Shown here: piece by piece, positions 40,283-64,000 of the stretch
How positions within the stretch are numbered: the stretch's first letter is position 1
How the letters are laid out: each line of letters opens with the position of its first letter
NCBI RefSeq assembly: GCF_003344865.1
Contig: NZ_CP031165.1
Location: 372,001 to 436,000 of the forward strand
Source of the DNA: Euzebya pacifica
GTDB lineage: Bacteria; Actinomycetota; Nitriliruptoria; Euzebyales; Euzebyaceae
DNA length: 64,000 bases
Direction: 5' to 3'
Program-made: the position numbers and the translations under genes
Notes under the pieces: model-generated
The model's database searches: none
Told to the model about the DNA's origin: nothing
The model's input: only the letters and a program-made list of their open reading frames with translations

Positions 40283-40363
40283 ATGGACTTCCGTCGTGTG
40301 CTCGGCGCATCGGTGGGGCGTGGCGAACCGGTGGTGGTCGAGCAGGAGACGAGGACGTCATGA
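40283..40363 (+). CDS. Possible 26-aa leader peptide
   Basis: A 26-codon frame (MDFRRVLGASVGRGEP and a short tail) with AGGAG about nine bases before ATG 40283. Its TGA overlaps the ATG of the next gene (ATGA at 40360-40363), so its translation would deliver ribosomes to the DUF4287-like gene, which has no strong site of its own. No regulatory codon run (for example repeated single amino acids) is visible. Confidence 0.4.
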   Translation: MDFRRVLGASVGRGEPVVVEQETRTS

Positions 40364-41028: not shown

Positions 41029-41243
41029 ACGCGTTGTTCGCTCGTCGGCGGCTCCAGTGGCTGAAAGGGACCTCAAGGCTGCGAATCGCGTACGGTCTGG
41101 GAACGCGACCCAGGATGATTGCCTGCGCTGCTTCGGGGGCGTCCTGCAGTTCGGGAGTTGAGAGCTCGTCAAAGCTGACGCTGGCCCTGAGGAACACTCT
41201 CATCAGTCGCCGAAGACGAACAGTAATTCCAGGAAGGTCAGAA
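41029..41243. other. Left border of the dpd island, no gene supported
   Basis: A 215-base stretch of lower GC than either neighbour, between the DUF4287/SRPBCC gene and dpdF. Open frames cross it on both strands without start sites, ribosome-binding sites or recognisable motifs; a decayed gene remnant is possible. It must contain the promoter of the plus-strand dpd operon, but no convincing -35/-10 pair was found. The ribosome-binding site AGGAAGG (41231-41237) belongs to dpdF. Confidence 0.5.
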
Positions 41244-43796: not shown

Positions 43797-43798
43797 GT

Positions 43799-44722
43799 AT
43801 GGCAATGCTCACCCCGCCCGAGGCGCTCCCCGCGCTGCTCCTGGCGGTCATGCGTCACGTGCAGGCGGAGGGGCGCGTTCATCGCGAGCTTCTGCACAAG
43901 CGCTTCGCTCCCCAGGCGCTGTTCGATGAGCCCAGGGGGCCTGACGACGGAGCCTACGGATCCACAGTTGCCATGGGAAGGTCCATCGGCGTGCTCCACG
44001 GAGGCACGGTGAGGGATCCGGAGGTTCGGCTCGATGAGGAGTTCGAGTCCTTCTCCGACGAAATCAACGCCGCCGTACTGCGGTCGTGGACGATGAGAAT
44101 CGACGCGGACGATCCGGATCCCTACAGCATGGCCGACGGCAAGGTTGTGTCCACGGGGTGCCGTGACATGCAGCGGGCTTTGGCTTGGTTCCTGACATTG
44201 GATCCCCGCGGGCCGGCACTCACCTGGACCAGCAAGAAGGTCCATAGCGTTGATGAACATCAGCAGACCCTCCCCAGGCACCTGTGGCCATTCGAGAACT
44301 CGACGCGATGGGGGGGTTTCACGCGGTGGGCAACCCTGCTGGGCTTCACGAGACCTCGGCCGTCGGAGAAGGTGGACGGTTTCGTACCCGATCTGTACGT
44401 CCCGACACGGGACGAGATCGGCGGTCTGCTCACTGATGATCCTAAAGAGCTCGCCGGGGTACTGGACCGCCTCGCAGCCCGGCTGCCTGTGATCGCGGGT
44501 GGTCAGATCCGTGGCTACATGCTGAAGCACCTCCAGTCCCAACAGGACGGGGTGGACGTGGCGCTTGCCCAAGCGCTGCTCCGGCTCGAGTCCGAGGGGG
44601 TCATCGCCCTGTCCACGGTCCAGGACTACACCATCAGCAACCCAAGCGGCATCGTCCGCTTGCTCTCGGGGTCGCGCGAGGAACGAGCGTTCACCCACAT
44701 CGCCCAAGGGGTATCCGCATGA
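43799..44722 (+). CDS. dpdG: DpdG-like protein
   Basis: A 307-residue protein assigned by position between DpdF and DpdH and by general size; no catalytic motif is visible. ATG 43799 lies two bases after the dpdF stop, and a purine-rich segment inside the end of dpdF (GAAGAGGTGA) can serve as its ribosome-binding site; ATG 43805 is an alternative. The C-terminal part (GYMLKHLQSQQDGVDVALAQ, LLRLESEGVIAL) has the look of a winged-helix segment. Its 3' end overlaps dpdH by four bases (ATGA). dpdG was reported as needed for the restriction phenotype in Salmonella. The gene could also be a divergent component not orthologous to dpdG. Confidence 0.68.
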   Translation: MAMLTPPEALPALLLAVMRHVQAEGRVHRELLHKRFAPQALFDEPRGPDDGAYGSTVAMGRSIGVLHGGTVRDPEVRLDEEFESFSDEINAAVLRSWTMRIDADDPDPYSMADGKVVSTGCRDMQRALAWFLTLDPRGPALTWTSKKVHSVDEHQQTLPRHLWPFENSTRWGGFTRWATLLGFTRPRPSEKVDGFVPDLYVPTRDEIGGLLTDDPKELAGVLDRLAARLPVIAGGQIRGYMLKHLQSQQDGVDVALAQALLRLESEGVIALSTVQDYTISNPSGIVRLLSGSREERAFTHIAQGVSA

Positions 44723-47700
44723 GCACCAAGACCTGCTGGTCCCGGACAGACGCCACCGACATCATGCTTGTCGACGCCGGGGAACCAGACGAGCAGAGCA
44801 ACCGGAGGTTCCTCGCAACTCACGTCCCTCAGGACGTCCAGATGTGGACGGGGCGGCAATGGGCGCAGACCCCGCAACCCGAGGGCGCCACAAGCGACAT
44901 CGACTCGCTGGCCTCGCACATCGCCGACGCGCCGATGGACGCGTCGATGTGCTGGGTTGCCGGCGATCCAGGAACCGGCAAGTCCCACCTCGTCAGGTGG
45001 CTGTGGCTGGCCAGGGTGCGCGACGCCCGTGCGGGCGAGCGGACCGTCTTCGTACCCCGCAGCGACACCTCATCCCTACGCCGGGTTGTCGACCGAATCA
45101 TCGGCGACGAGTCCGGCGAGGAAATGGATGCTGTGCGGGAAGCGCTGTCCGAAGCCGCTGACAGCTACCCGACGATGACCTCCGCTCGCCGGACCCTCAT
45201 CCTCGAGCTCGCAAACATCGCGGCCGATGATTGGGCCTTGGCGGAGTCCGAGAGCTTCAGGCCGTTCACTGAACGAAGCTGGTCCAGCGACCACGTTCGA
45301 GTGGCACGAAACCTGTTCTCCTGGCTGACCGAGGAGCAGTTCCTGAACCAGTTGCTGTCCGACGATGGTCTGGCCGCGCGGGTCGCCGGTACACGTCTCG
45401 GGCGTCGCCGGGCGGAGGAACGCGAGGAAGAAGATCTCGTGTTCGCTCCCCGTGACCTTCCGCTGGCCCCTGAGAAGGTTGAGCGTGCGTCTGCTCCAGC
45501 CAGGGAGCTCCACGAGCTGATCTCTGACGACGGGCATTTCCAACAACGGCTGGTCCAGGTGCTGAACACCTACCTCGATCGGGCGGTGCAGAAGGTCTTC
45601 GGTGTCAGGCAGGGAATGGTCACCGACGCCGCGCTGGAGCTGCGACGTCGACTCAAGGAACGCGGCGAGACCCTCTGGCTCTACTTCGAGGACTTCGCGG
45701 TCCTTCAGGGGGTACAGCAAGAGCTTCTCGATGTCTTCGTGGACAACGCCCCCGCCCTCTGTGATATCCGCGTGGTGGCCGCGATCACCCCGGGCCCGCT
45801 GAGCCAGCTCCCGACGATGGTGTGGGGCCGGACGTCCGCTGTTGTGGACCTCAATATGGCGACCGGTGCTGCTGGACAGTTCCGCGACCAGCTCGTGGGG
45901 CGCTACCTCAACGCCGTCCGTGTCGGTACGGATCGGCTGGCAAGCCTGTCCATCGACGCTCCCACACCGAACCAGTGCAACGACTGCCCCTTGGGACTGT
46001 CGGCGGAGTGCCACGAGGCGTTCGGGACCGTGGAGGTCGAGGGAGTCGGGCACGTCGGTCTGTATCCGTTCAACCGTCAAGCGCTCGAACGGGCGGTCGC
46101 GGCCAAACTGGGGGATGAAGAGTCCCAAACGTTCGTGCCGCGGTTCGTGATCACCGATGTGCTACGCAACATGGTGCACAGCAACCACGCGGTGCTCGAG
46201 GGGGGTCGGTTCCCAAGGCCCGCCGTTGTCGATCAGTTCACCGTTGCGGACGACCGGATCCGTCAGGGCGTGAGAGACATGCTTCACGACGGCTGTGTGG
46301 ATGCTGGGATGGACACCTCGGCCGCTGAGCGACTCGTAGCGTTCCAGGGGCTGTGGGGTAGGTCAAGGGTTGCGTTCGATGAGGTTCCTGAGGGCGCGAG
46401 GTCCCTGTTCAACCTGCCGGCCCCTCCAACCTCCCAGATGGAGGTCAACGAACCGAAGGGTGCCCCTCCGACCCGGAAGCCGCGACCCCAACCCGGCGGA
46501 ACGCCTCCAGCTACCGTCGCGCCGCCGACCCGCCCCGACAAGGTGCAGGAGGTTGACCGGTGGACAGAAGAGCCCTCTCGCGAGCTCCCCGAGGCGCTGC
46601 GCCGGGACGTTCGTCAGCGCATCCACGCTCGCGTTGTCAGCAGCCTTGGCCTGCACGATGGCCGTCACAGCGCGAAGGCGTGGTCAGGACGGGATGGGTT
46701 CGAGCCTGAGGACATCGTGCTCGACGGTCGTGCTCCCGCAGGCCGACGGCCCCAGCTGGTTCACCTCGACAAGTCTCCGGAGGTTGCACTGGCGCTGGAG
46801 GAAGTCGTCTGGGATCAGGCGAACCCTTTCCTCGGCGGCAACGACACAGCTGCACGTCAGCGACGGGCGGCAGACATGCTTGTCGACCGTCTGGCCGAGC
46901 AGGTTTCCGCTGAGACGCTCATCGGTGGGCCGGAAGCGGAACATGCACAAGCGGTCCACCTGCTCCGCTTGCTCCTCTCGACGGGAGCAGTGCTCGGGCT
47001 TCACTGCGAGAGCGATACGCCCGAGGCGGTGATCGACGCTGCCCTCCGAGAGCCCTCGGCGCTTCCGCCCGTCGGTGATCCCGCCTGGGGGAAGCTGCGC
47101 GACGCTGCGTTGGGCAACGCCTCCCGGACTGCGGAAGGCAGTCGGCAGATGGCACGGGACCTGCTCCTCCGGCTTGTCGCGTTCACCCGTGAGGGAGGCA
47201 ACGTGCACGCCGTGGACTTCGACCGGCTCAAGGGTCCGGCTGCCGAGGCGTCCGCAAGCTGGGTCGTGGACCTCAAGGCGCTGCCGCGAGGCGTGCAGGA
47301 CTACGCCAGGACCTTCCAGGAGAGCCTGGCTGCCAACCTTGGCCGTTCCTTGGAGTCTGCGAGGGACTGGGCAGAGAAGGTCCAGGCTGATCTGGATGGT
47401 GATCTCCTCACCATGGCCAAGAAGGTCAGGACATCCTTGACCGCGGGCCGTGGCAGGTCCCTCTTCGTGACGGCTGACGAGCAACGGGTGGTGAACGATG
47501 CGATCGTCACCTGTGACCGGGTCATCGAGCGCGGCCAGCAGGTGGACACCGCCGCGCTGCGACATCTGGCCAAGGAGGTCGCTGCCGTTGATCAGGTCGA
47601 TGAGCGAGCGACGCTACAGGTCCTCGAGCACTACCACCGGTCCCAAAATCAGGTCGGCTTGGTCCGATCGTTGCTGGGCGACGGGAGAGCTGCGCTGGAG

Positions 47701-47826
47701 ATGGCGCTCTCGAACGCCACCAAGGACCGGAAGGATGGCGACGCCGCCGTCGATCTACCGGATCCACGCGCAACCGTGCAACGCGTTTCCGCCACAGCCC
47801 GAGCACTGAAGGAGGCCATCCGATGA
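44719..47826 (+). CDS. dpdH: DpdH-like P-loop ATPase
   Basis: A 1035-residue protein with a Walker A motif GDPGTGKS at residues 82-89 and a candidate Walker B in LWLYFEDFAVLQ near 315. A cysteine group CNDCPLGLSAECHEAFG near residue 420 could bind zinc or iron-sulfur. After a proline-rich linker (about 575-610) the C-terminal third is helical with acidic and basic stretches. The size, order and N-terminal ATPase match DpdH of dpd clusters. It is coupled to dpdG and to the next gene by ATGA overlaps. Probable role: nucleotide-driven motor or switch of the restriction complex; this is inference from its place in the operon. Confidence 0.75.
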   Translation: MSTKTCWSRTDATDIMLVDAGEPDEQSNRRFLATHVPQDVQMWTGRQWAQTPQPEGATSDIDSLASHIADAPMDASMCWVAGDPGTGKSHLVRWLWLARVRDARAGERTVFVPRSDTSSLRRVVDRIIGDESGEEMDAVREALSEAADSYPTMTSARRTLILELANIAADDWALAESESFRPFTERSWSSDHVRVARNLFSWLTEEQFLNQLLSDDGLAARVAGTRLGRRRAEEREEEDLVFAPRDLPLAPEKVERASAPARELHELISDDGHFQQRLVQVLNTYLDRAVQKVFGVRQGMVTDAALELRRRLKERGETLWLYFEDFAVLQGVQQELLDVFVDNAPALCDIRVVAAITPGPLSQLPTMVWGRTSAVVDLNMATGAAGQFRDQLVGRYLNAVRVGTDRLASLSIDAPTPNQCNDCPLGLSAECHEAFGTVEVEGVGHVGLYPFNRQALERAVAAKLGDEESQTFVPRFVITDVLRNMVHSNHAVLEGGRFPRPAVVDQFTVADDRIRQGVRDMLHDGCVDAGMDTSAAERLVAFQGLWGRSRVAFDEVPEGARSLFNLPAPPTSQMEVNEPKGAPPTRKPRPQPGGTPPATVAPPTRPDKVQEVDRWTEEPSRELPEALRRDVRQRIHARVVSSLGLHDGRHSAKAWSGRDGFEPEDIVLDGRAPAGRRPQLVHLDKSPEVALALEEVVWDQANPFLGGNDTAARQRRAADMLVDRLAEQVSAETLIGGPEAEHAQAVHLLRLLLSTGAVLGLHCESDTPEAVIDAALREPSALPPVGDPAWGKLRDAALGNASRTAEGSRQMARDLLLRLVAFTREGGNVHAVDFDRLKGPAAEASASWVVDLKALPRGVQDYARTFQESLAANLGRSLESARDWAEKVQADLDGDLLTMAKKVRTSLTAGRGRSLFVTADEQRVVNDAIVTCDRVIERGQQVDTAALRHLAKEVAAVDQVDERATLQVLEHYHRSQNQVGLVRSLLGDGRAALEMALSNATKDRKDGDAAVDLPDPRATVQRVSATARALKEAIR

Positions 47827-48536
47827 CGACCATCGCCGCGTTGGCGGACCAGCTCATCTCCGTGTGTGACACACTTGCGGAGGGGGCGGCATCCGCGAGC
47901 CGCATCGCCTCGGCGCTGCGCAGGCTAGAAGGACTGGAGGACGCAGCTGAGGAGCTCGATGACCTCCTGGTTCCGATGAACGAGCTTGCCCTGGTCGAGG
48001 CCACGGTCGACCTTCCCGAGCGTCTGAGCATCCTTGCGCAAGCCCCTGACATCGAAGAGGGGATGGCCTGGCTCGGTGCCGAGGATTCGGTCAACTACCG
48101 GGACCTCGTGCGAGGCGTCGCGAACGACCTCCGGTCTGCTCTTGCCGACGCTTGGACGAATCGGTTGGAAGCAGTCGAAGCGCCTACCGCGAGCCGGACC
48201 GTGCTCCACGCGTTGGAAGGACTGGGGAAGTCCAACCCCGTCGTCATGGCTTCCGTGGCCGTGATTCGCAAGCGTTCGGACGACTTGGCAGAGATGCAGC
48301 GGACAGACACCCCCGAAGAGGGGGAGGGTGCCGCGCTGCTGTTGGCCGAGCACGAGCTGAAACGGGCCTGGGCGTCGATCCACGATTCGGGCGTTCCCGA
48401 GGACCGTCTGGAACTGCTCGAACGCTTGGGCAGCGTCAAGGGCGTACCGATCAGCGAGGTCACCGACGACCAGATCGCGTGGTTGCGTGAAGCCGGACTT
48501 GCAGGTGATTTTGCGCTAAGGCGAAGCGCGATGTGA
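47823..48536 (+). CDS. dpdI: DpdI-like helical protein
   Basis: A 237-residue, mostly helical protein that follows dpdH with an ATGA overlap. It starts MTTIAALADQLISVCDTLAE, continues with RIASALRRLEGLEDAAEELD and ends in a basic tail. I see no enzyme motif; long amphipathic helices suggest a coiled-coil partner, perhaps of DpdH. The dpdI label rests on gene order only. dpdI was among the genes reported as required for restriction in Salmonella Montevideo. After it comes a 78-base gap, the largest inside the operon, with a weak hairpin (AGATCC/GGATCT). Confidence 0.6.
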   Translation: MTTIAALADQLISVCDTLAEGAASASRIASALRRLEGLEDAAEELDDLLVPMNELALVEATVDLPERLSILAQAPDIEEGMAWLGAEDSVNYRDLVRGVANDLRSALADAWTNRLEAVEAPTASRTVLHALEGLGKSNPVVMASVAVIRKRSDDLAEMQRTDTPEEGEGAALLLAEHELKRAWASIHDSGVPEDRLELLERLGSVKGVPISEVTDDQIAWLREAGLAGDFALRRSAM

Positions 48537-48614
48537 ACCGAGAACCCGGGTGTGACCAGATCCGTCGGGGATCTGTCGCAGGGACGGGACCGAACCCGAG
48601 GGTGGTGTTGAGTG

Positions 48615-54396: not shown

Positions 54397-54926
54397 TGGG
54401 ATCCCGCGACATTTCACTCCGTGGCGACGGCGCCGAGCCCGCGCTGGACCGGGAGCTGCACAAGCTGTTCGTCAGCGAGCTCATCGCCCCGTCGAAGCCG
54501 TTCTGGATCGTGTCGGCATGGCTCAGCGACGTGGACCTGGTCGACAACCGGGGCGGCGAGTTGCTTGAGATCGCGCCGGCGCTCCCGGTCCGGAGCCTCA
54601 GGCTCATCGAGCTCTTGGACCACCAGGTCTCCGTTGGTGCCGAGGTCAACGTCGTGGTTCGGGACGTGAGCCACAACCGACCCGTCCTCCGGCGTCTCGA
54701 GGACATCCGCGGCAGGTCGACCTCGGGGGTGCTCCGGCTGGCAACCAAGGAGGACCTGCACGAGAAGATCCTGCTCTCCTCGCGTCTGATGGTCAGCGGG
54801 TCCATGAACCTGACACACAACGGACGGATCAAGAACACCGAGCACGTCACGTTCACCGACGACACCGACCGAATCGAACGGGAACGGCTCTCCTTGGAGC
54901 AGCTGTACGGAGGAAGCCTGTCATGA
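54396..54926 (+). CDS. dpdK: DpdK: phospholipase D-fold protein
   Basis: A 176-residue protein with a single HKD-type motif: H122-x-K124 in DLHEKILLSSR, followed by SGSMNLTHNG (134-143). One motif per chain implies a dimer, as in the nucleases Nuc and BfiI. A phospholipase D-fold protein next to a large helicase is the hallmark of DpdJ-DpdK and of DISARM DrmC. It is a candidate DNA-cutting subunit for unmodified DNA. ATG 54396 forms TGATG with the dpdJ stop; GTG 54393 is the alternative. The 3' end overlaps dpdD by four bases. The active-site residues are intact. Confidence 0.85.
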   Translation: MGSRDISLRGDGAEPALDRELHKLFVSELIAPSKPFWIVSAWLSDVDLVDNRGGELLEIAPALPVRSLRLIELLDHQVSVGAEVNVVVRDVSHNRPVLRRLEDIRGRSTSGVLRLATKEDLHEKILLSSRLMVSGSMNLTHNGRIKNTEHVTFTDDTDRIERERLSLEQLYGGSLS

Positions 54927-57067
54927 CGTCGGTGATCGAGCAGTTCTTCGGTGATGGCAACGCGATCAGTCCGGCCAGTCTCCCGACGGAGTTCCGAGCC
55001 GCCTTGGATCCGTGGGTCGCCCGGTTCGAGAGCCGGGAGGGGAGTGCCTTCTTGCCACGTGCCCATGATGGGACGCTGCGGTGGTACGGACTCACCCCCG
55101 GCGGCAACGCCCGCCGGGAAATGGAGGGGTTGCTGATCCAGTGGCTCGGCGCGTCGTTCACCGACATGGAGGCCAACCGCGGTGTCCTGGATCCTGACGA
55201 CCCCTTCGATGCGTGGCTGGAGGACGAACTTCCGGGCCGCGTCGTGCGATTCGAGGTTCTGCCCCGTGGGGACTCGACGCATCGGGAGACCGTCCGGTCT
55301 CGTCTCTCGTCTCTCGTCGATCTTGTTGACGGCAGGCCGGACCGTCCTGCGTTCAGCTCCTTTCGCCTGCGCGCGCTCATCGAGGACATGCACAAGGCGG
55401 CTGGCCGAGGACAGCGGGACGCCGCGGCAGCGGTGCTGGGCGTCATCCGCGACCGACGACTGGTTGACGAGGCCAACCTGCTTTTCCTCCGCGTGGAGAT
55501 GCTGCACCGGCTTCACGCTTGGGATGAGCTCCTGGCCCCGACCATGCTTGATCGTCTGGAGCGGATGAGGGTCCCGCCAGGAGTGGTCAGGGCGATCGAC
55601 GACGCCGTCTACCAGCGTGATCTGGCGGAGCACGACGAGGCTGGCGACGTTGACGCGCTGATGCGGTTGCGGGACCAGATTCCCCCGGAGGTTCCCGGCA
55701 TCGCGATCCAAGGCGGTGCGCCCGCCGGCCGCGCTGACCTGATCGTCCAGGCGTTGCTTCTCGGCGACCGCCCACTGACGGTCGAGCGGTTGCTCAACAG
55801 CACCGACGACGCCATCGTCATCGAGATCCTCGGCCATGGTGACGCCGCTGGCGGCGCAGGCTCTGCGAGTGCTCCCGAAGCTCCTACCGTTCCAGACCTT
55901 GGTCAGCTCTACAGCGCTGCGGGTCAGCACGACCACGCTGGGGTGCTGACCATCGCCGAGCGGTTGCCCGGTCCGATTGATCCGTTCGCAGCGCAGACCG
56001 TGCTCCAGGCAGCGCACACGCTCGGGGACAAGGGCGCGGCAACCCGCGCGCTCGCCGTGACGTCGCGGGATCTGGGACCGCTCGGCAACGTTCAGTGGAC
56101 CCATGTGAGCATCGCCTCGATCGTGGAGGACTTGCAGGCCCGGGCTACCGGCGGTGCACCCACGTCCTGGGCGGCCTGGCTCCGGTTGGCGGCTGACGGC
56201 GACGAACGCGCCCAGACCTACGAGCCGTCCGGTGACTGGGCTGCCGCGGATCCCGAGCAGGTGCTGGAGATCGTTCCGGGGATCGAACCAGGCCTGCTGG
56301 CGTCGGTCGTCGGTCAACTGCGCTCCGCGCACCGGGATCTCCTGACCGGGGAGCAGCGCGCCGACCTCGGCCTGACCTGTCTGCTTGCGCTATCCATCAG
56401 CGAAAGCCGGCGAGAGCCGGACCGCCTAGCGGCCAGCGAGATGCTCGAGGACGTTCTCGACGGGGGCGGAGTGGTGCCCCTCGAAGATGTGGTCGACGTG
56501 CTGGAGGACCTGGTCCACGCCCACATGGGGCCGAGTTCCGCGGAGTGGGCCATCGACGTACTCGGTGAGGTTGTCGAAGTGGCCGTTGGCGACGACCGGG
56601 CGCTCGCCGCGCGGCTCACCACCAGGATCGTCGACGAGCTCCGGACCTGCTGGTCGAGCGTGAACCGGGGCCTGTACGAGGCGCTCCTGGACTCCGCCAC
56701 CGCCTGCGGCACCGACATCCCAGCCGACCTCAAGCACTCCGCGGCGGCCGAGGAACCGCTTCCCTACGAGCACCTCCGCGGCAAGCGGATCCTGATCTAC
56801 TCCCTTATGGAACGCCCGGCGCGCCGCGCCGCCGCTATCCTCCGCGCTCTTGGCGGCGGGACCCAGGTGCACGTTGCAAACGACCACGGAGGAAGCGATC
56901 GTCTCGGATCCATTGCGCAGAACGTTGACATCGCTGCCATCGTCACGGTGGCTGCGAAGCATGCTGCGACAGACTTCATCAGGGCCCAACGCGCCCCGTT
57001 CCCCTGTCTGGATATAAACGCATTGGGGACTACCGCGATCCTCAGGAGGTTGGCCCGTGACGGCTAA
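54923..57067 (+). CDS. dpdD: DpdD-like protein
   Basis: A 714-residue protein beginning VIEQFFGDGNAISPASLP, which matches the FFGxGN start I associate with DpdD. Helical repeats dominate residues about 100-620. The C-terminal ~100 residues (LRGKRILIYSLMERPARRAA, VHVANDHGGSDRL, AAIVTVAAKHAATDFIR) resemble a DUF2325-like Rossmann half-domain. dpdD is one of the genes reported as needed for restriction in Salmonella Montevideo. It is coupled to dpdK by an ATGA overlap, and its last 11 bases overlap the HNH gene. No nuclease motif seen. Identity moderately sure; biochemical role unknown. Confidence 0.75.
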   Translation: MTSVIEQFFGDGNAISPASLPTEFRAALDPWVARFESREGSAFLPRAHDGTLRWYGLTPGGNARREMEGLLIQWLGASFTDMEANRGVLDPDDPFDAWLEDELPGRVVRFEVLPRGDSTHRETVRSRLSSLVDLVDGRPDRPAFSSFRLRALIEDMHKAAGRGQRDAAAAVLGVIRDRRLVDEANLLFLRVEMLHRLHAWDELLAPTMLDRLERMRVPPGVVRAIDDAVYQRDLAEHDEAGDVDALMRLRDQIPPEVPGIAIQGGAPAGRADLIVQALLLGDRPLTVERLLNSTDDAIVIEILGHGDAAGGAGSASAPEAPTVPDLGQLYSAAGQHDHAGVLTIAERLPGPIDPFAAQTVLQAAHTLGDKGAATRALAVTSRDLGPLGNVQWTHVSIASIVEDLQARATGGAPTSWAAWLRLAADGDERAQTYEPSGDWAAADPEQVLEIVPGIEPGLLASVVGQLRSAHRDLLTGEQRADLGLTCLLALSISESRREPDRLAASEMLEDVLDGGGVVPLEDVVDVLEDLVHAHMGPSSAEWAIDVLGEVVEVAVGDDRALAARLTTRIVDELRTCWSSVNRGLYEALLDSATACGTDIPADLKHSAAAEEPLPYEHLRGKRILIYSLMERPARRAAAILRALGGGTQVHVANDHGGSDRLGSIAQNVDIAAIVTVAAKHAATDFIRAQRAPFPCLDINALGTTAILRRLARDG
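57044..57049 (+). promoter_or_regulatory. Consensus ribosome-binding site inside the 3' end of dpdD
   Basis: AGGAGG seven bases before GTG 57057. It settles the start of the HNH gene, which lies within the last codons of dpdD. Confidence 0.8.
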
Positions 57068-57878
57068 GGTCGCCGCTGGTTCGGTAATGGACTTTATTCC
57101 GTTTGCCACAAGGGGAGAGCGCCTGTTCCGTCGCATACGTGATCTCTGTCGGGTGGAGATACAGATAGCCGCGGAGATTGATCGACGTGCTTCCCTCATC
57201 GACCGGGAGGAATTGGGTTCCAACTTCCTCTCGACAACCCAGGCGTTCTCAATGTTTGGAAGACTTATGAAGGGGGCCCGGTGGGCGCGGAGTGAAATGC
57301 TTAAGAGTGACCCGGTTGCATTCGACTCCTATCTGACGGACCTTATCCTGCATGAGTGTCACGTCGCGGTGGAACAGGTACGCAGGATTTTACCCTTGCT
57401 CATGGATGCCCTCGAAGTGTGTGACAAGTCGCCAAGTCCGGCACTGAGCAGGGAAGTGCGTGATACGCATCCAGACCATTGTATTTACTGTGGGCGCAAT
57501 TCAACGGAGGCGGACGGGAAGCGGTTGACCGTCGAGCATGTTTGGCCGAGCAGTCTCGGTGGCGACACAGACTTTGAGAACCTTGCCCCCGCGTGCAAGG
57601 GCTGTAATTCCGCCCGGAATCACGCTGCGTTATGGACCGAATTCTGGTTTCAGGGGTTCCACGTTAGACCGCGACCTTCGCAGAACGAAGTCGAAACTTT
57701 TGACTCCACCAAATACCGGATCGCTGTGATGCTGTTTCGGGCGGAACGAGACTCCCAAGCCAAATCGCTGAAGGAAGCACTGTACGCCCGAGGACCCATC
57801 CAGTCCTTAGAACTTGAAGGACGAACACAGCCTGTGGACTTCATAGATGTCGCTCGCGAGGCAAGGAAGTACTATTGA
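57057..57878 (+). CDS. HNH endonuclease, extra component of the dpd operon
   Basis: A 273-residue protein with an HNH nuclease domain at about 140-190: C142-x2-C145 and C180-x2-C183 make a zinc knuckle around the E160-H161 pair (LTVEHVWPSSLGG), N175 and H189. The N-terminal 130 residues are helical and unrecognised. GTG 57057 is fixed by AGGAGG at 57044-57049. GC in this gene is plainly lower (about 57% in a line I counted, against about 65% in dpdJ) and codons ending in A or T are frequent, which suggests separate acquisition. It is coupled downstream to a DGQHR gene (TTGA overlap). HNH proteins next to DGQHR proteins may form a two-gene restriction module; that is inference. Confidence 0.85.
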   Translation: MTAKVAAGSVMDFIPFATRGERLFRRIRDLCRVEIQIAAEIDRRASLIDREELGSNFLSTTQAFSMFGRLMKGARWARSEMLKSDPVAFDSYLTDLILHECHVAVEQVRRILPLLMDALEVCDKSPSPALSREVRDTHPDHCIYCGRNSTEADGKRLTVEHVWPSSLGGDTDFENLAPACKGCNSARNHAALWTEFWFQGFHVRPRPSQNEVETFDSTKYRIAVMLFRAERDSQAKSLKEALYARGPIQSLELEGRTQPVDFIDVAREARKYY

Positions 57879-58999
57879 ATACAAATACTGAAGGAACTTC
57901 TGTGTACCAATACCCTTGCTTGCAGGTTGAACAGAGGCCGTCAGTTGAAGAGGCGCCTGTCTGCGTCCTCTTCTCCGCGCCCGCAGGCGACCTCCTGGAG
58001 TGGTGCGAGGTTGATAGGGCCGAGGTTGGCAAGAGTGGGGGAGTTCAAAGGCGAAAGAGTCCGGCCAAGACCAATGCCATTTCGAAGTACTTGGAGCAAG
58101 ACCCAAGGAACACGATTCCCGCCGCGCTGACAATCGCCCTCTATGGCGTCCGTGTCATCGACGAATCGGGTTCAACCCATATTAAAGTTGAAGGCAAGTC
58201 CAAGTCGCTAGTAATTGATGGTCAGCACCGACTCTATGGCGCGGCTGCGAAGCATGGTGACATGCCACTCAACATCGTTGGTCTGATCGATCCATCGGAC
58301 CTAGAGGTCGCATTTCAGTTCCTGGTCATCAACAATAAGTCTACCCGAGTCCCAAGTGATCACATTCGCCTCCTCGCACTTCAGTACGACGACGAAGAGC
58401 TGAGGGCGCGTCTGGCGACTGCTCGAATAAACCTTGATTCGAGTGCGCCGTATGTCGGAATAGTCGATGGTGACGAAGCCTCACCATTCTACCGAAGTCT
58501 AATGTGGCCGGTTGATGATAACCGTAAGGGCCAGGTGAACCTTGTCCGGCCGGCGGCTATTGAACTGGCACTGAACTATTGTGGTAGGAAGGAGTTGCCG
58601 GGGTTGGAGAACGATGATGCGCTTATCGGGTTCTTCTTTGCTATGTGGGGCGCTATCAAGGAGGCGTGGTCAGATCTCTGGGTAGCGGATTCCCGCCTCC
58701 TGAGTAAGGCGGGGTTGGTGGCCATGACGATGTTCATGGTAGATGATCTCACGCCGCTTATTGATCGAGGTGAGGTGGACGCTGGAGACCCCGACTCCGT
58801 CTATGGGGAGACCCGCAAGGTTTTGGAAAGCCTAACCCCTGAATTCTGGGCCGCCGAGTGGGACCTAAAGGGCCTAGATACGCAAGCGGGTCGACAAGTG
58901 ATCGTGGAAGCACTGCAGAAGACTCGGCGAAATCTACGGCGGGATCTGCCTTGGGAGACCGAGGTGCGCTTGGTCTCAGATCGCCAACCGGCCCAGTAA
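57875..58999 (+). CDS. DGQHR-domain protein 2, HNH partner
   Basis: A 374-residue protein with DGQHR at 115-119 (SLVIDGQHRLYGAAAKHGD) and the associated block FQFLVINNKSTRVPSDHIRL. The start is TTG 57875, overlapping the HNH stop by four bases with AAGGAAG upstream. Its GC is low (about 52-58% in lines I counted), like the HNH gene and unlike the rest of the island. Sequence differs strongly from the DGQHR protein between dpdI and dpdJ and from the two DGQQR proteins of the opposite operon, so it is not a recent duplicate. DGQHR proteins of phosphorothioate and deazapurine systems act in regulation or modification; here the pairing with a nuclease suggests control of, or target choice for, that nuclease (inference). 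Confidence 0.82.
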   Translation: MNTNTEGTSVYQYPCLQVEQRPSVEEAPVCVLFSAPAGDLLEWCEVDRAEVGKSGGVQRRKSPAKTNAISKYLEQDPRNTIPAALTIALYGVRVIDESGSTHIKVEGKSKSLVIDGQHRLYGAAAKHGDMPLNIVGLIDPSDLEVAFQFLVINNKSTRVPSDHIRLLALQYDDEELRARLATARINLDSSAPYVGIVDGDEASPFYRSLMWPVDDNRKGQVNLVRPAAIELALNYCGRKELPGLENDDALIGFFFAMWGAIKEAWSDLWVADSRLLSKAGLVAMTMFMVDDLTPLIDRGEVDAGDPDSVYGETRKVLESLTPEFWAAEWDLKGLDTQAGRQVIVEALQKTRRNLRRDLPWETEVRLVSDRQPAQ

Positions 59000-59055: not shown

Positions 59056-59109
59056 CTGAGGTCTCGCGATGATCGCGGTTGTCGATACAGCAAGCTTCGG
59101 AGACCTCAG
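59056..59109. repeat. 10-bp inverted repeat flanking the transposase remnant's left end
   Basis: CTGAGGTCTC (59056-59065) and its exact complement GAGACCTCAG (59100-59109) are separated by 34 bases, directly before the first coding bases of the decayed ISL3-type transposase. It may be part of an insertion-sequence end or a leftover secondary structure; no matching right end was found. Confidence 0.45.
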
Positions 59110-59110
59110 G

Positions 59111-59519
59111 GTGGGTGACGACACGACGTTGGGCACCGTGTTGCTCGGCTTGGGGCTTCGCGCTGCGCGAAGCCACGCTCGTGGACGGCGAGGTGTGGCT
59201 GTCGGTGGAGACCACCATCCGGCCCCCCGACTGTCTGGACTGTACGGTGGTGGGCCACGCCACATGGCCGCCGCACGGTGCAACTACGGGACCTGGCGAT
59301 CGGCGGACGGCCGTCCCGGCTGGTGTCGTCCAAGCGGATCTGGCGCTGCCGCGAAACGCTGTGCCCCAAGGCGACGTGGACCGAGCGGCGCGATGATGTC
59401 GTCAGACCCCGCAACGGCATGACGGAGCGGGCCCGGGCGGAGGTGTGCCGGCAGGTCGGCAAGCTCGGCCGGCCCGTCGCGCAGCTGGCCGGCGAGTTAG
59501 GGGTCGGCTGGCAGGTCCC
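59111..59519 (+). pseudogene. Decayed 5' part of an ISL3-family transposase
   Basis: Three successive frames together rebuild an ISL3 transposase N-terminus. Frame one gives TLGTVLLGLG, frame two GFALREATLVDGEVWLSVET then RPPDCLDCTVVGHA, and frame three RTVQLRDLAIGGRPSRLV, KRIWRCRETLCPKATWTERR, MTERARAEVCRQVG and LAGELGVGWQV. Cysteine pairs of the N-terminal zinc finger (CLDC, CRETLC) are visible. The first shift falls at a GGGG run near 59152, the second near 59245, each equal to one extra base. The homology stops abruptly after GWQV near 59515, so the catalytic DDE region is lost. A perfect 9-bp hairpin lies at 59154-59174. Non-functional remnant sitting in the seam between the convergent dpd operons. 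Confidence 0.8.
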
Positions 59520-59684
59520 GCCTTCCAAGTCTTTTCTGCCGTCCCATACGGAACGGATGGAGCAACGCTGCCCGATTCTGACCCCAGGTGTCGGTCATGT
59601 TCCTTGAAGGGGCGAGAAAGGCGACGTCGAACCGCATCACCATCTCCCCGCACTGGCTTGAGAATCGACCAGCCGAGACGATGG
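59520..59684. other. Intergenic tail between the convergent dpd operons
   Basis: About 165 bases after the transposase homology ends. Short frames exist on both strands without starts or motifs that I can support. It may be further mobile-element debris. The minus-strand modification operon ends here; no clear terminator hairpin was found. Confidence 0.4.
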
Positions 59685-60797
59685 CTAGGTTGATGTCATC
59701 CGGTACTGAGCGAGCAAGTAGTTGCTCAGCAACTGCTGATCCTTGGACGTGTTCTGTAGCTCGTTCCAGCGGCGCTCGACACCCGGGCCGAACTCCCAGA
59801 ACCCCCGGGTCCAGCGACACACCTCCTCGATCGAGCGGATCTCGGTCTCGAACGTCTCGATGGTCGGGACCCTCACGTCGTACTCACGGTCGAGGATCGC
59901 GTCCATGAGGAAGCCCATCGCGATGACCCCGGCGCCGTGCACGAGGCGTGATCGCCGGGGAGTCTCCTCCCAGGCTTCCGGAAAAACCTTCGCCACAGCC
60001 GTCCAGTAGTTCTTGAGGATCGCGAGCATGGGTTCTTCGTCTCCGGCGCCCGTGAAGGGGTCCCGGAAACGGTAGAGGCCACCCTCGGTGAGAGAGTTGT
60101 CGACCATTCGGAGGACCGAGTTGTCCTTGATGATCCCGTCAGGGTTGGTCGAGGTGCGGATGCGGAGGTGCATCGGGCTGTCGGTGTCGTAGTTCAGGCG
60201 CTCCAGCAGGTACGCCGGGAAGCGCTTGCGTTCCAGGAGCCTCGGCAGCTTCGCCTGGGTCGTGGGCAGCAGCTCGTGGATCAGGCCCTTGGGCAACGGC
60301 TTGGTGGAGTTCACGAGGATGAACTGGGCGCGCTGCTCCTCGAGCGAGTCGGTGATGAAGGCGGTCACGGCCATGGGGAACGCCCCGACGTTGGCCTCCC
60401 GCACCGCGGCCGATCGTTGCTGGCCGTCGACGATGAAGCCTGGCTTGTCCTCTCCCGAACCGTTGACGATCGGGATCTCAAGGTGACCATGGCTGGCGTA
60501 ACCCACCTCATCGGCCGCCGCCAACGGGGTGAACTTCACACGTGAGTCGAACGCCACCACGAGGGCGTTGGGGATCATCGGATCCTCGGCCTCGAGGTAG
60601 TCCTTGATCGCCCGAATGTGCTTGACGGCCTCCGGGCGCTGGTAGCCCTCGACGGCGTTGGCCTCGTCACGCTTCGCTCGGGTCACCGATGCGAAGTCAT
60701 GGATCGACTTGGCGTCGACCGCGAAGGAGTACAGCGTTCGGTTCTCGCCCTGCTTGATCTCGATGGCGGGCACGCGGATGGTCGTTGTGGTGGTCAT
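59685..60797 (-). CDS. DGQQR-domain protein 2 (DpdB paralogue)
   Basis: A 370-residue protein directly after dpdA with no spacing (ATG 60797, dpdA stop at 60798-60800). It carries FIVDGQQRSAAVREANVGAF (DGQQR at 124-128) and FILVNSTKPLPKGLIHELLP. It parallels the other minus-strand protein block by block: GYQRPEAVKHIRAIKDYLEA against GYQRDQVRSHVNDIRDYL, and SRLVHGAGVIAMGFLMDA against SRLMHGAGIRAMGRLMDK. The two are clearly paralogues, now well diverged. In Salmonella one DpdB suffices with DpdA for preQ0 insertion; a second copy suggests a heteromeric or divided function. Either this protein or its paralogue could be the functional DpdB. Confidence 0.82.
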   Translation of the reverse strand: MTTTTTIRVPAIEIKQGENRTLYSFAVDAKSIHDFASVTRAKRDEANAVEGYQRPEAVKHIRAIKDYLEAEDPMIPNALVVAFDSRVKFTPLAAADEVGYASHGHLEIPIVNGSGEDKPGFIVDGQQRSAAVREANVGAFPMAVTAFITDSLEEQRAQFILVNSTKPLPKGLIHELLPTTQAKLPRLLERKRFPAYLLERLNYDTDSPMHLRIRTSTNPDGIIKDNSVLRMVDNSLTEGGLYRFRDPFTGAGDEEPMLAILKNYWTAVAKVFPEAWEETPRRSRLVHGAGVIAMGFLMDAILDREYDVRVPTIETFETEIRSIEEVCRWTRGFWEFGPGVERRWNELQNTSKDQQLLSNYLLAQYRMTST

Positions 60798-62042
60798 CTA
60801 GTGCCCCTCCTGGAGCTTGTCTCGCAGTGTCTGGGCGAACATGGCCACGTTGTGGAACCCCCGCCGCTTGTTTCGTTCTGTGCCCCGGAACAGCACGACC
60901 TCGACGTCGACCTCGGCGCAGATACCGCACTGACAGGTCTCCCAGGGCCGGTCCCTCAGCGTTTCGATGTATCTGTCGGTACGCACCCTGCCGTCCCACA
61001 TGGCGTGGTACTCCGCCAGGGCCTCCAGGACCTCGTCCATCTCGATCTGCCGGTCGGCGTAGGCGCGCACGAGCCGTAGGCATCGCTGCTCGGCCTGATG
61101 GGCGACGTCGTGGTCGATCTTCCCGCTCTTGATCGCTCGCTTAACCTTGGCGTTGCCGTCGACCGGGGGGATCCGGATCGCCGTGTAGCGGCGGTCGGCG
61201 GTGAAGTAGTTGTCGGTGTCGTCCTTGAACGCCCTGAAGAACGGCGACGTCGAGTCGAAGCTGGTCACCCCGAACCGTGCGAAGTCGTGCATGTGCTCGA
61301 CCCGGGTGAGTCCGAGCAGGTGGAGCTGGGTCTCGGGCAGTCGAACCGCGTCGACTGCCTCCAGCACCTCGAGGATCTGCGGGTTCTTCAGCGGCACCAT
61401 GCCGCCCAGGGCAACCCGTCGGTACCCCATCTGCTGGAGCTGCTCCACACACGACGCCATCGACGACGGGCTCCAGCCCTGCGCAGCCCCGACCGGTTCG
61501 AAGGTGCATCCGCGTGCGGCATGCCGGGTCAGGAACTCACCCGCCAGCTCGAGGGTGATGGCCTGCCGCTCCTTCCACATCGGATCGACGTCGTCGGTGC
61601 CCGGCAGGGTGGGCTCGAGGTCGGACTGATGGGCCAGGATGACGTGGTCAGGGGAGATCCCGGCGTCGAACCCGCAGCCGTCGTAGAAGTCAATGACCTC
61701 GTCCGGTGTCACGGGCGGTACCGGCTCATCGACGTAGGTGAACGCACCGCAGTCGCCGAGGGTGATCAGCGGCGGTCCCTCGCTGGCCTCGAGCCGGAAG
61801 AAGCGGTGGGCCCCCTGCCGGTACAGCCGGTGACGCTGGGGGACCGTGTAGCGACCGCTGCTGCCACCGACCCCGTCCACCATGGCCTTGGACACGAGCA
61901 TCCCGTCGTAGGCACGCAGCGTCAGAGCCTCGTGGGCGTAGCGGTCGTCGCGCTGCCGAACGTGGAACGGCGGGTGCTCCTCTCGCTCCATGTCGAAGGT
62001 TGGATCGATCTGGTCCTGGCTGTCCGGGAAGTAGAACAGCAT
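60798..62042 (-). CDS. dpdA: DpdA: tRNA-guanine-transglycosylase-like DNA base-exchange enzyme
   Basis: Predicted to replace guanine in DNA by preQ0. The 414-residue start is ATG 62042, overlapping the upstream stop (TGATG); a longer frame upstream reads antisense to nothing useful and is rejected. Motifs map on the TGT barrel: GDCGAF (Asp97) in place of DSGGFQ, VGAAQGW (Gln188) for the QGG motif, ALGGMVPL (Gly213-Gly214), FDSTSPF (Asp263) at the nucleophile position, and a zinc site C370-x-C372-x2-C375 with His397. It lacks any tRNA-binding PUA domain, as DpdA proteins do. It lies between two DGQQR genes in a tight operon. preQ0 must come from genes outside the window. This protein identifies the island as a dpd system. 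Confidence 0.92.
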   Translation of the reverse strand: MLFYFPDSQDQIDPTFDMEREEHPPFHVRQRDDRYAHEALTLRAYDGMLVSKAMVDGVGGSSGRYTVPQRHRLYRQGAHRFFRLEASEGPPLITLGDCGAFTYVDEPVPPVTPDEVIDFYDGCGFDAGISPDHVILAHQSDLEPTLPGTDDVDPMWKERQAITLELAGEFLTRHAARGCTFEPVGAAQGWSPSSMASCVEQLQQMGYRRVALGGMVPLKNPQILEVLEAVDAVRLPETQLHLLGLTRVEHMHDFARFGVTSFDSTSPFFRAFKDDTDNYFTADRRYTAIRIPPVDGNAKVKRAIKSGKIDHDVAHQAEQRCLRLVRAYADRQIEMDEVLEALAEYHAMWDGRVRTDRYIETLRDRPWETCQCGICAEVDVEVVLFRGTERNKRRGFHNVAMFAQTLRDKLQEGH

Positions 62043-63172
62043 CACGCAACCTTCATCCGCTGCGTGACGTAACGACGGATCAGCAGGTTCGACAACGCCC
62101 GGACGTGCTTCGGGGTGTTCTGGATGTCGTTCCACGCCATGTCGCCGAGGTCCTCCCACTGCCCGTCCAGCCAACGGCAGATGGGCGCGACGGTCCCGAG
62201 CTCGGCCATGATCTGCTCGTGAGCGTCGTCAGCGTTGGGGTTGACCGTCGCCATCACCTTGTCCATGAGACGGCCCATGGCACGTATGCCCGCACCGTGC
62301 ATCAGCCGGCTCTCCGTTGACGGCAGCCCCCAGGCTTCGGGGAACGTGTCCCGCACCGCTGCCCAGTACGCGGTCACGGTCAGCCAGATCGTCTCCGTGT
62401 CGGCCTCGCCGGTCGCCAGGTTGCGGTAGGGGAACAGACAGCCGGATGACTGCTGCAGGCTCTCCTCCAGCATCTTGACGATCGACGTGTCGGTGATCGG
62501 CGCCTGCTTCCGCTCCTCCGGAGCCGAGGACGGTCGGCGGATCATCCCCTGGAACGGGGAGTCGTCCTGGCGGTTGAGCTGATCGCAGATGGCCGCAGGG
62601 AGCTTGCGCATGCCCAGCTTCCGGGAGATGGGCACGACGACCTCCGGGAGGAGCTCGGTCACGAGGCCGCGAGGCAGCGGCTTGGTGTTGTTGACCCGAA
62701 GGAACTGATCTCGCTGCACCGACACCTGATCAGCGACGAACGCGCTGACGGGGATGGGCAGGTCATCACGCATGACGTCGGCGAGCGCGAAGGCGCGCTG
62801 CTGTCCGTCGACGATCCAGGCCGGCTTCCGATCTCCACCCAGGCAGATCTCGAGCGTCCCGCTTCGTGACAACCCGTCGGTTGCCCCGGGACCACGAGAG
62901 GACCGGAAGCGGTGCTCACCGTCCAGCGCGAGGATGATCGCGTTTGGGAAGACGATGTCATCGCCACGCAGGTAGTCGCGGATGTCGTTGACATGGCTAC
63001 GGACCTGGTCTCGCTGGTAGCCGATCAGCTGCCCCTCGTCATCGCGAGAGATCCGTGAGATGTCGGCGACCTGAAGGATCTCAGACGGGGACAACGTGAA
63101 CATGTAGAGGACGTGCCCGCCGGGCTGCTCCAGCTGGAGGGCGCGGCGTTCGATGGTCTTGGTTTCAGACAA
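62042..63172 (-). CDS. dpdB: DpdB: DGQQR-domain protein 1
   Basis: A 376-residue protein just upstream of dpdA. TTG 63172 is used: it gives MSETKTIERRALQLEQPGGH, matching the paralogue's start, and overlaps the upstream gene by eight bases with GGGAGA before it. A longer frame upstream runs in another reading frame of that gene and is discarded. The DGQQR motif is at 122-126 (AWIVDGQQRAFALADVM), followed by QFLRVNNTKPLPRGLVTELL. In Salmonella DpdB is an ATPase needed with DpdA for preQ0 insertion. Note Q-Q-R in place of the classical Q-H-R seen in the two plus-strand DGQHR proteins. Coupled to dpdA by a one-base overlap. Confidence 0.85.
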   Translation of the reverse strand: MSETKTIERRALQLEQPGGHVLYMFTLSPSEILQVADISRISRDDEGQLIGYQRDQVRSHVNDIRDYLRGDDIVFPNAIILALDGEHRFRSSRGPGATDGLSRSGTLEICLGGDRKPAWIVDGQQRAFALADVMRDDLPIPVSAFVADQVSVQRDQFLRVNNTKPLPRGLVTELLPEVVVPISRKLGMRKLPAAICDQLNRQDDSPFQGMIRRPSSAPEERKQAPITDTSIVKMLEESLQQSSGCLFPYRNLATGEADTETIWLTVTAYWAAVRDTFPEAWGLPSTESRLMHGAGIRAMGRLMDKVMATVNPNADDAHEQIMAELGTVAPICRWLDGQWEDLGDMAWNDIQNTPKHVRALSNLLIRRYVTQRMKVA

Positions 63173-64000
63173 GGGTGTTCTCCCGCTTCTCCTGCTTGAC
63201 CGCCTCGAAGAGCTTCCCGAAACGCTTCTGCTCGCATGCCTTGCCGGCGTCGTCACGGAACTTCCGCAGGAGCGGCGACCGGGTCAGCGTCGGGTCACGG
63301 TCCAGCTGCGTCCGGATGAATGCCTTCACCTGCTCGTCGGTGGTCACCTCACGGTCAGGGACAACCTTGGGACGGGCCAGCGCGGTGGTGTCACGCAGGC
63401 TCGACGCGATCTCGTCACGGTCAAGCCCCCGGCCGAGACGCTGGACCACCAGGCTGGCTGCCCGCTGGTTGAGCGACAGGCGGGTGCCAGGTGCGAGCTT
63501 GTCCTCGATCCGTGCGTCGAAGGCGGGATCGTCCGCGGTGCCGTCCAGATCCTTGCCTGCGCACACCAGCATGGCCTGTGGATGGGAAAGCAGCTCGCTG
63601 AGGTCCGTGCCGAAGGCGGCGGCGTACGCGCTGGACGCAACGACCATCACGGGTGCCCCGCCGTTGCTGGGTGGTAGCTCGGCGAGGCGGCGGGGTCTCC
63701 CGGTCCGCAACGCCCGCGACCGCGCTAGCGCCTTCCACCACTGTCGACGACGGACTGCCGAGCGGCGTCCCGACGGGTCGAGTCCGGCGTCGTCCTCGCT
63801 CGGCGGGGAGAACGTCGCTCCGTAGCCGACGATCTCGTCGTCCGCGGCTATCAACCCGTAGCCCGCGGAGGCGACCCAAAGGACGGGGGAGAACCCCGCC
63901 TCCCGGGCGTCGTCCTCCAGCTGCTGGGACTGCAGCCATGCCTCGCCCATGTACCGTTCTCGGGCCGTCATCGCGTCACGCGCAGGGGAGAGCAGCTGCT
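63165..64000 (-). CDS. YaaA/DUF6884-like protein of the modification operon, 5' end outside the window
   Basis: The frame is open to the right edge (codons QLLSPARDA precede ATG 63971), so the start lies beyond the window. The segment reading ERYMGEAWLQSQ, LWVASAGYGLIAADDEIVGY and GATFS follows the pattern of DUF6884/YaaA-type domains, where a short ARD-Y box, a SA-YGL-I strand and a D-I--Y turn are conserved. The rest is helical (RLSLNQRAASLVVQRLG; LTRSPLLRKFRDDAGKA). It precedes dpdB with an eight-base overlap, so it is the first visible gene of the dpdBA operon. Its place would suit dpdC, which converts dPreQ0 to the amide, but I cannot confirm homology. Also possible: a nucleic-acid base handling accessory protein. 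Confidence 0.62.
   Translation of the reverse strand, partial: QLLSPARDAMTARERYMGEAWLQSQQLEDDAREAGFSPVLWVASAGYGLIAADDEIVGYGATFSPPSEDDAGLDPSGRRSAVRRRQWWKALARSRALRTGRPRRLAELPPSNGGAPVMVVASSAYAAAFGTDLSELLSHPQAMLVCAGKDLDGTADDPAFDARIEDKLAPGTRLSLNQRAASLVVQRLGRGLDRDEIASSLRDTTALARPKVVPDREVTTDEQVKAFIRTQLDRDPTLTRSPLLRKFRDDAGKACEQKRFGKLFEAVKQEKRENTLV

What the first reader, a model, noticed from the sequence alone, without database searches (positions are those of the whole stretch)
57057..58999. Low-GC HNH nuclease plus DGQHR pair attached to the end of the restriction operon
The pair is translationally coupled (TTGA) and fused to the operon by an 11-base overlap with dpdD and a perfect AGGAGG, yet its base composition (about 52-58% GC in counted lines) is far from that of dpdJ (about 65%). 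This looks like a self-contained two-gene module captured by the dpd operon, possibly a new effector or an independent defence unit with its own target check.
Basis: partly seen in the sequence, partly recalled or inferred. Interest (0 to 1): 0.75.

Follow-up and report, generated by a model that had tools for sequence, protein, structure and literature searches.

The report
Portable HNH–DGQHR nuclease pair, DNA-mark linked
Two overlapping genes at the end of a bacterial DNA-marking defence island encode a nuclease and a ParB-like switch protein that travel together between different DNA-marking systems, and probably form a compact module that cuts DNA lacking the host's own chemical mark.

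Summary
At 57057-57878 (HNH, 273 aa) and 57875-58999 (DGQHR, 374 aa) two overlapping genes are fused to dpdD by an 11-base overlap and AGGAGG. Their GC3 is 0.61 against 0.82 for the island.

The pair is a recurrent module. I found 29 HNH+DGQHR pairs: 25 in genomes or records with dpd (7-deazaguanine in DNA) genes, 3 with dnd (phosphorothioate) genes, 1 with neither. Its slot in the island varies. HNH and DGQHR distances track each other (Mantel r 0.94) far better than DGQHR tracks DpdA (0.58). In six dpdA+ genomes, three of them isolates, the pair is present while DpdD, DpdH and DpdJ are not found, so it may stand in for the dpdD-K restriction operon.

HNH-linked DGQHR proteins group apart from DpdB and DndB. 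The model is a ParB/sulfiredoxin fold with a helical tail; the HNH catalytic residues are intact.

Best reading: a two-gene analogue of DndI, SspE and BrxU, in which the DGQHR NTPase reads the host mark and gates the HNH nuclease. Nuclease, fold and linkage are supported; gating and direction of discrimination are inferred. I found no earlier description in the library searched. New variant of a known kind.

The parts
57044..57049 (+). Shine-Dalgarno AGGAGG, 7 nt before the GTG of the HNH gene
   Evidence: sequence
57057..57878 (+). HNH nuclease gene of the pair, 273 aa: N-terminal helical domain plus C-terminal HNH (C142, C145, H161, N175, C180, C183, N184 invariant in 20 relatives)
57875..58999 (+). 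DGQHR protein gene of the pair, 374 aa: ParB/sulfiredoxin-fold putative NTPase (QR58-59, DGQHR115-119, F149xxxN153) with helical C-terminal region
54923..57067 (+). dpdD, upstream neighbour overlapping the HNH gene by 11 bases
   Evidence: NF041061 505 bits
54393..54926 (+). dpdK (PLD-like)
   Evidence: NF041068 163 bits
49990..54396 (+). dpdJ (helicase)
   Evidence: NF041067 1517 bits
48612..49808 (+). extra DndB-like DGQHR gene between the 237-aa gene and dpdJ (context, not part of the pair)
   Evidence: PADLOC DndB 112 bits; TIGR03233 95 bits, under its cut-off
40296..48536 (+). dpdF, dpdG, dpdH and a 237-aa gene in the DpdI slot
59060..59532 (+). frame-broken ISL3 transposase remnant directly after the pair
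   Evidence: NF033550 3.5e-8; Pfam Zn_ribbon_ISL3 6.4e-5 and HTH_Tnp_ISL3 1.7e-4, both just under cut-off
59685..63971 (-). dpdB, dpdA, second dpdB and dpdC: the modification genes that supply the mark
   Evidence: NF041060 493 and 413 bits, NF041059 570 bits, PADLOC DpdC 187 bits

Best explanation
The pair is a portable two-gene restriction effector that works with a host DNA-modification system. The DGQHR protein is a ParB/sulfiredoxin-fold NTPase that senses the host's own mark: 7-deazaguanine in dpd islands, phosphorothioate in dnd islands. It holds its dedicated HNH nuclease in check on marked DNA and lets it nick or cut unmarked invading DNA. Functionally this is DndI, SspE or BrxU (ParB-like NTPase plus HNH) split over two translationally coupled genes. 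Where dpdD-K is present it is a second effector; where dpdD, dpdH and dpdJ are missing it is the only restriction-like component found next to the modification genes. Shown: gene structure, intact HNH motif, ParB/Srx fold prediction, recurrent coupling and linkage to dpd/dnd. Inferred: NTPase activity, physical complex, mark sensing, direction of discrimination.
For: 29 adjacent HNH+DGQHR pairs. DpdA over cut-off in 22 of 28 searched genomes holding such DGQHR loci, against 2 of 396 in the window's phylum, both of which carry the pair. DndC over cut-off in 4 of those lacking DpdA. HNH-DGQHR distance correlation 0.94 against 0.58 and 0.56 with DpdA. Gene spacing -74 to +16 in 16 loci, six with overlaps of 1-4 bases. 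DpdJ, DpdH and DpdD not found while DpdA is present in Variovorax beijingensis T529, Herbaspirillum rhizosphaerae UMS-37, Mycobacterium sp. URHB0044 and three MAGs. HNH residues invariant in 20 rows. DGQHR model pLDDT 90.8 matches ParB, PadC, KorB and sulfiredoxin, with a weak long match to the type IV enzyme BrxU. HNH-linked DGQHRs group apart from DpdB and DndB. Precedent: DndI, a DGQQR ATPase plus HNH nickase, works with DndBCDE without DndFGH (PMC11662687); GmrSD occurs as one or two genes (PMC4619093); a ParB+HNH GmrSD-family enzyme complements BREX (PMC12839542).
Against: No biochemistry exists for this family. The match to BrxU is weak (Z 4.4, rmsd 8.1). No sequence relationship to solved SspE or DndI was detected. 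The HNH proteins of the reversed-order pairs share only the HNH core with ours. One pair (L022) sits in a genome where neither DpdA nor DndC was found, though at a contig edge. In two DGQHR loci (L017, L029) no HNH was seen. Both signs of discrimination remain open.
Confidence: 0.55

Rival explanations
1. The HNH protein is an accessory nuclease of the DpdD-K machinery and the DGQHR protein a DndB/DpdB-like regulator or modification helper; the two do not form their own effector.
For: The window pair is fused to the dpdD-K operon. The DGQHR protein is a distant relative of DpdB (hhalign probability 99.3%, 20% identity), and DndB is a regulator (PMC4507180 listed; PMC10853773).
Against: The pair occurs beside dndBCDE and in dpd genomes where dpdD, H and J are not found. 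HNH and DGQHR co-diverge far more tightly with each other than with DpdA. The DGQHR partner groups apart from DpdB and DndB.
Confidence: 0.2
2. A type IV, modification-dependent enzyme: the pair cuts phage DNA that carries its own modified bases, as GmrSD does, and merely lives in dpd islands.
For: Fold class and HNH resemble GmrSD/BrxU and McrA; phages carry 7-deazaguanine DNA (PMC6884629).
Against: Near-exclusive linkage to hosts that mark their own DNA with the same class of mark would make a reader-cutter of that mark self-destructive; it would need to read a different phage mark.
Confidence: 0.12
3. A back-up suicide module: the DGQHR protein monitors the modification or restriction system, and HNH destroys the cell's DNA when the system is inhibited.
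For: Backup effectors beside modification and BREX systems have been proposed (PMC10853773, PMC12839542); the pair often adds to a full dpdD-K set.
Against: It also occurs where dpdD, H and J are not found; no sensor domain for phage proteins was seen.
Confidence: 0.13

Closest known systems
DndI (DUF262-DUF1524, with IscS-DndBCDE; PMC11662687)
   Same: ParB-like NTPase with DGQQR motif plus HNH nickase; linked to a DNA-modification system; can act without DndFGH
   Different: DndI is one polypeptide with a DUF1524-type HNH; here two genes, a DGQHR (DndB-family) NTPase and a classical PF01844/HNH_5 nuclease; mostly with dpd, not dnd
SspE, and BrxU/GmrSD (type IV or modification-linked)
   Same: ParB/Srx NTPase coupled to HNH; GmrS and GmrD can be separate genes; BrxU weakly matched along most of the DGQHR model
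   Different: No sequence match to solved members; different HNH family; linked to 7-deazaguanine islands
DpdB (NF041060)
   Same: Same DGQHR superfamily; always present as separate genes in the same islands studied
   Different: Window protein scores 52.7 bits against a 300 cut-off; DGQHR rather than DGQQR; separate group in the tree
DndB (TIGR03233)
   Same: Same superfamily (Pfam PF14072, 32 bits)
   Different: No TIGR03233 match; separate group; partnered with an HNH gene
PtuB / IscB / McrA HNH nucleases
   Same: HNH core only
   Different: No similarity outside the HNH core; different N-terminal domain and partner

Membership tests
Dpd island (7-deazapurine in DNA) | dpdA and dpdB modification genes with dpdD-K restriction genes | tested here: met
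   DpdA, B, D, G, J, K and F over NCBIfam cut-offs; DpdH 443.9 against 450; DpdC by PADLOC
DpdB (NF041060) | score over the curated 300-bit cut-off | tested here: not met
   DGQHR of the pair: 52.7 bits
DndB (TIGR03233) | score over the curated 328-bit cut-off | tested here: not met
   No match to TIGR03233 at E up to 1
DGQHR domain (TIGR03187) / PF14072 | domain score over cut-off; DGQHR motif, QR pair, FxxxN | tested here: met
   72.8 against 58.85 and 32.3 against 29.1 bits; QR58-59, DGQHR115-119, F149..N153
ParB/sulfiredoxin fold | structural match of the N-terminal domain | tested here: met
   PadC Z 8.5 over 99 residues at 2.6 A, ParB-CDP Z 8.2 over 95 residues at 2.5 A, sulfiredoxin Z 5.8-6.7
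HNH nuclease (PF01844/PF14279) | Pfam score over gathering and H-N-N residues present | tested here: met
   41.1 and 41.6 bits; H161, N175, N184 invariant
SspE/DndI/GmrSD | DUF262 domain with DUF1524 HNH | tested here: not met
   Neither DUF262 nor DUF1524 appears in the Pfam scans of the two proteins at E up to 1
SspE/DndI/GmrSD | fold of the NTPase domain shared with BrxU | tested here: inconclusive
   BrxU Z 4.4, 250 residues, rmsd 8.1
SspE/DndI-like mechanism | mark-stimulated NTPase that controls the nuclease | not testable with these tools
   needs purified proteins

The most novel reading that the evidence does not exclude
A single mobile reader-nuclease cassette serves two chemically unrelated self-marks, a base (7-deazaguanine) and a backbone sulfur (phosphorothioate), and can by itself replace the whole dpdD-K restriction machinery, giving minimal dpd restriction-modification systems of the form dpdABC plus que genes plus HNH-DGQHR.
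Probability: 0.35. Interest if true: 0.8.

Novelty: new variant of a known kind. Interest (0 to 1): 0.62.

Why it matters
How Dpd systems tell marked from unmarked DNA is largely unknown, and the known restriction part needs many large proteins. Here are dpd islands whose only visible restriction-like part is a two-gene NTPase-nuclease pair, about 2 kb, also found beside phosphorothioate genes. That makes the question testable with two small proteins and suggests that ParB-fold NTPase plus HNH is a general effector for host-marked DNA, across BREX (BrxU), phosphorothioate (SspE, DndI) and now 7-deazaguanine systems.

Tried and rejected
Viral contigs: no relative of the DGQHR protein; among phage records only three weak, partial DGQHR matches. 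The Variovorax RA8 HNH hit (H1) has no DGQHR gene annotated beside it and was set aside. Sequence search of solved structures found nothing meaningful for DGQHR. The Foldseek/VIA lists do not show DndB, SspE or DndI; that is no evidence against kinship. DptF search of the dnd-linked genomes found nothing, but no control rang either, so absence of DndFGH rests only on the annotation and blast-checked neighbourhoods. DpdF hits in dpdJ-less genomes are under cut-off and confined to the helicase core, as in all 14 controls; one, a 957-aa frame in Variovorax, was not examined. The idea that low GC by itself proves recent capture was dropped, since most copies are lower than their neighbours. A different partner history of the window HNH is hinted at (p-AU 0.035) but its branch is the longest in the tree, so it is not claimed.

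Full report
OBSERVATION. Both proteins have curated domain matches, so they are not chance ORFs. Composition: HNH 55% GC / GC3 0.61, DGQHR 55% / 0.61; every other gene of the island lies at 63-69% and GC3 0.76-0.89 (profile). The island is dpdF, dpdG, dpdH, a 237-aa gene, a DndB-like gene, dpdJ, dpdK, dpdD, HNH, DGQHR on the plus strand, and dpdB, dpdA, dpdB, dpdC on the minus strand. The pair is single-copy in the 6.37 Mb genome.

WHERE ELSE. A genome of the same phylum (G031) has the same order dpdJ-K-D-HNH-DGQHR. On plasmids the pair stands beside dndBCDE in Pseudomonas aeruginosa pae001 and after dpdD in Agrobacterium vitis CG957, where an IS5 splits the DGQHR gene. One scan of 84,980 species genomes with a four-row alignment gave 49 loci. 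Mapping their neighbours shows HNH directly upstream of DGQHR in 19 of the 22 best loci, and, in five more distant loci, a longer DGQHR gene (505-618 aa) followed by a different HNH-motif gene. Bradyrhizobium 41S5 has the latter order too. Total: 29 adjacent pairs (window, G031, L006, L007, L013-L016, L018-L028, L030-L032, L034, L035, L038, L040, L058, L059, L089). L032 has a frame-broken DGQHR and L022 a HNH cut by the contig end.

LINKAGE. DpdA is over cut-off in 22 of 28 genomes holding such DGQHR loci. Of those without, L013 has dpdJ-K-D adjacent, L018, L019 and L033 have DndC, L017 is a fragmentary MAG contig, and L022 has neither. Counting the 29 adjacent pairs: 25 dpd, 3 dnd (L006, L018, L019), 1 neither. 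In L019 the dndC gene is on another contig and in L025 dpdA is elsewhere in the genome, so for those two the link is by genome only. In a sample of 396 genomes of the window's phylum only two have DpdA, and both carry the pair. In a separate sample of dpd plasmids chosen by DpdA alone, 2 of 10 plasmids with dpdB-type matches carry a pair-type DGQHR. So the pair is an accessory of dpd islands, not a core gene. The genome scan was seeded with dpd- and dnd-linked members, so a bias toward such relatives is possible.

A MODULE, NOT TWO NEIGHBOURS. Spacing between the genes runs from -74 to +16 bases in 16 loci, with short overlaps in the window, L015, L023, L026, L027 and L028. Across 11 loci HNH and DGQHR distances correlate at r=0.94, DGQHR and DpdA at 0.58, HNH and DpdA at 0.56. 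L020 and L021 share 68%/65% in the pair but 47% in DpdA; L024 and L028 share 64% in DpdA but 35%/21% in the pair. That is the pattern of a cassette exchanged among islands. The slot differs: after dpdD (window, G031, L013, L023, L034), near que genes (L014, L021, L024, L026, L028), before dpdC (L015, L016), convergent with dpdD (L021, L027). In a maximum-likelihood tree the HNH-linked DGQHR proteins fall together (93/91) apart from both DpdB types, solo DGQHR proteins and DndB; the dnd-linked members lie inside the dpd-linked ones.

A POSSIBLE STAND-IN FOR dpdD-K. Six genomes have DpdA and the pair while DpdJ, DpdH and DpdD are not found: Variovorax beijingensis T529, Herbaspirillum rhizosphaerae UMS-37 and Mycobacterium sp. 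URHB0044 (isolates) and three MAGs. Positive genomes in the same searches rang, so the searches worked. DpdF appears only as sub-threshold helicase-core hits, as in unrelated controls. In L028 the island reads dpdC-dpdB-dpdA-dpdB-queC-queD-HNH-DGQHR, and the downstream proteins checked have no restriction-related Pfam domain. Draft assemblies leave some doubt: in L024 the contig ends right after the pair.

PROTEINS. HNH: N-terminal helical domain, C-terminal HNH with C142, C145, H161, N175, C180, C183, N184 invariant in 20 sequences that otherwise share only 16-25% with the window protein. Model pLDDT 79.7; the core matches McrA, Gme HNH nickase, Cap5 and Cas9/IscB HNH domains. DGQHR: model pLDDT 90.8; residues about 18-157 match ParB, PadC, KorB and sulfiredoxin, with a weak long match to BrxU. 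Invariant residues include the QR pair, DGQHR and FxxxN motifs that GmrS shares with DGQHR domains (PMC4619093).

MECHANISM. The nearest worked-out case is DndI: a DGQQR ATPase fused to an HNH nickase that works with IscS-DndBCDE, whose ATPase is raised by phosphorothioate and which leaves marked self-DNA (PMC11662687). SspE (PMC9646914, PMC13251355, listed) and BrxU (PMC12839542) follow the same plan. I propose that the DGQHR protein plays the NTPase-sensor role and the partner gene supplies the nuclease. Linkage to self-marking systems argues against a type IV enzyme that cuts that same mark. Shown here: anatomy, conservation, co-divergence, linkage. Inferred: NTP hydrolysis, complex formation, reading of the mark, cutting of unmarked DNA.

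CAPTURE. The window copy differs from its island by 0.21 in GC3 and is followed by a frame-broken ISL3 transposase remnant, so recent arrival is plausible. Copies elsewhere are often, not always, lower in GC than their neighbours (12 of 16).

LITERATURE. In the open-access library I found no description of a DGQHR-HNH pair in dpd islands. A dpd survey lists 146 gene compositions, 801 extra dpdB copies and HNH genes near islands lacking the restriction operon, without naming the pair (PMC11888242). PT-system and BREX surveys list HNH partners and ParB-HNH fusions but not this dpd pair in the passages read (PMC10853773, PMC12839542, PMC12704722). Most subscription papers, including the primary Dpd papers, were not available, and supplementary tables were not read, so novelty is provisional.

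Noticed in passing
window 48612-49808: A DndB-like DGQHR gene (PADLOC DndB 112 bits) sits between the 237-aa gene and dpdJ; in the other islands where both flanking genes were recognised (G031, L013, L021, L040) they are adjacent. It is only 21-29% identical to plasmid DndBs and gives this island four DGQHR-family genes.
   Followed up: partly
window 59060-59532: Frame-broken ISL3 transposase remnant between the pair and the convergent dpdB gene.
   Followed up: yes
window 57057-57878: The window HNH protein is only 20-27% identical to its relatives although its DGQHR partner is 46% identical to the actinobacterial ones; longest branch in the HNH tree, so faster change or partner exchange.
   Followed up: partly
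L035, L038, L040, L058, L059, L089: Reversed-order pairs, longer DGQHR (except L089) followed by a HNH-motif protein sharing only the HNH core with ours, also in genomes or records with dpd genes: the nuclease partner may have been replaced more than once.
   Followed up: partly
L007:8942-11062: In Agrobacterium vitis CG957 an IS5 element splits the DGQHR gene while the HNH gene is intact; a natural test of whether the nuclease is harmful without its partner.
   Followed up: no
L022:3-1629: Brevundimonas vesicularis NBRC 12165 has a pair at a contig edge in a genome where neither DpdA nor DndC was found.
   Followed up: partly
L036, L037, L039, L041-L051: A clade of solo DGQHR proteins of about 345 aa in cyanobacteria and Campylobacterota without a detected HNH neighbour; partner unknown.
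   Followed up: no
L090:17097-25269: A Caulobacter plasmid dpd island without the pair carries a block of helicase-related, hypothetical and large AAA-domain genes after queC, possibly another alternative effector set.
   Followed up: no
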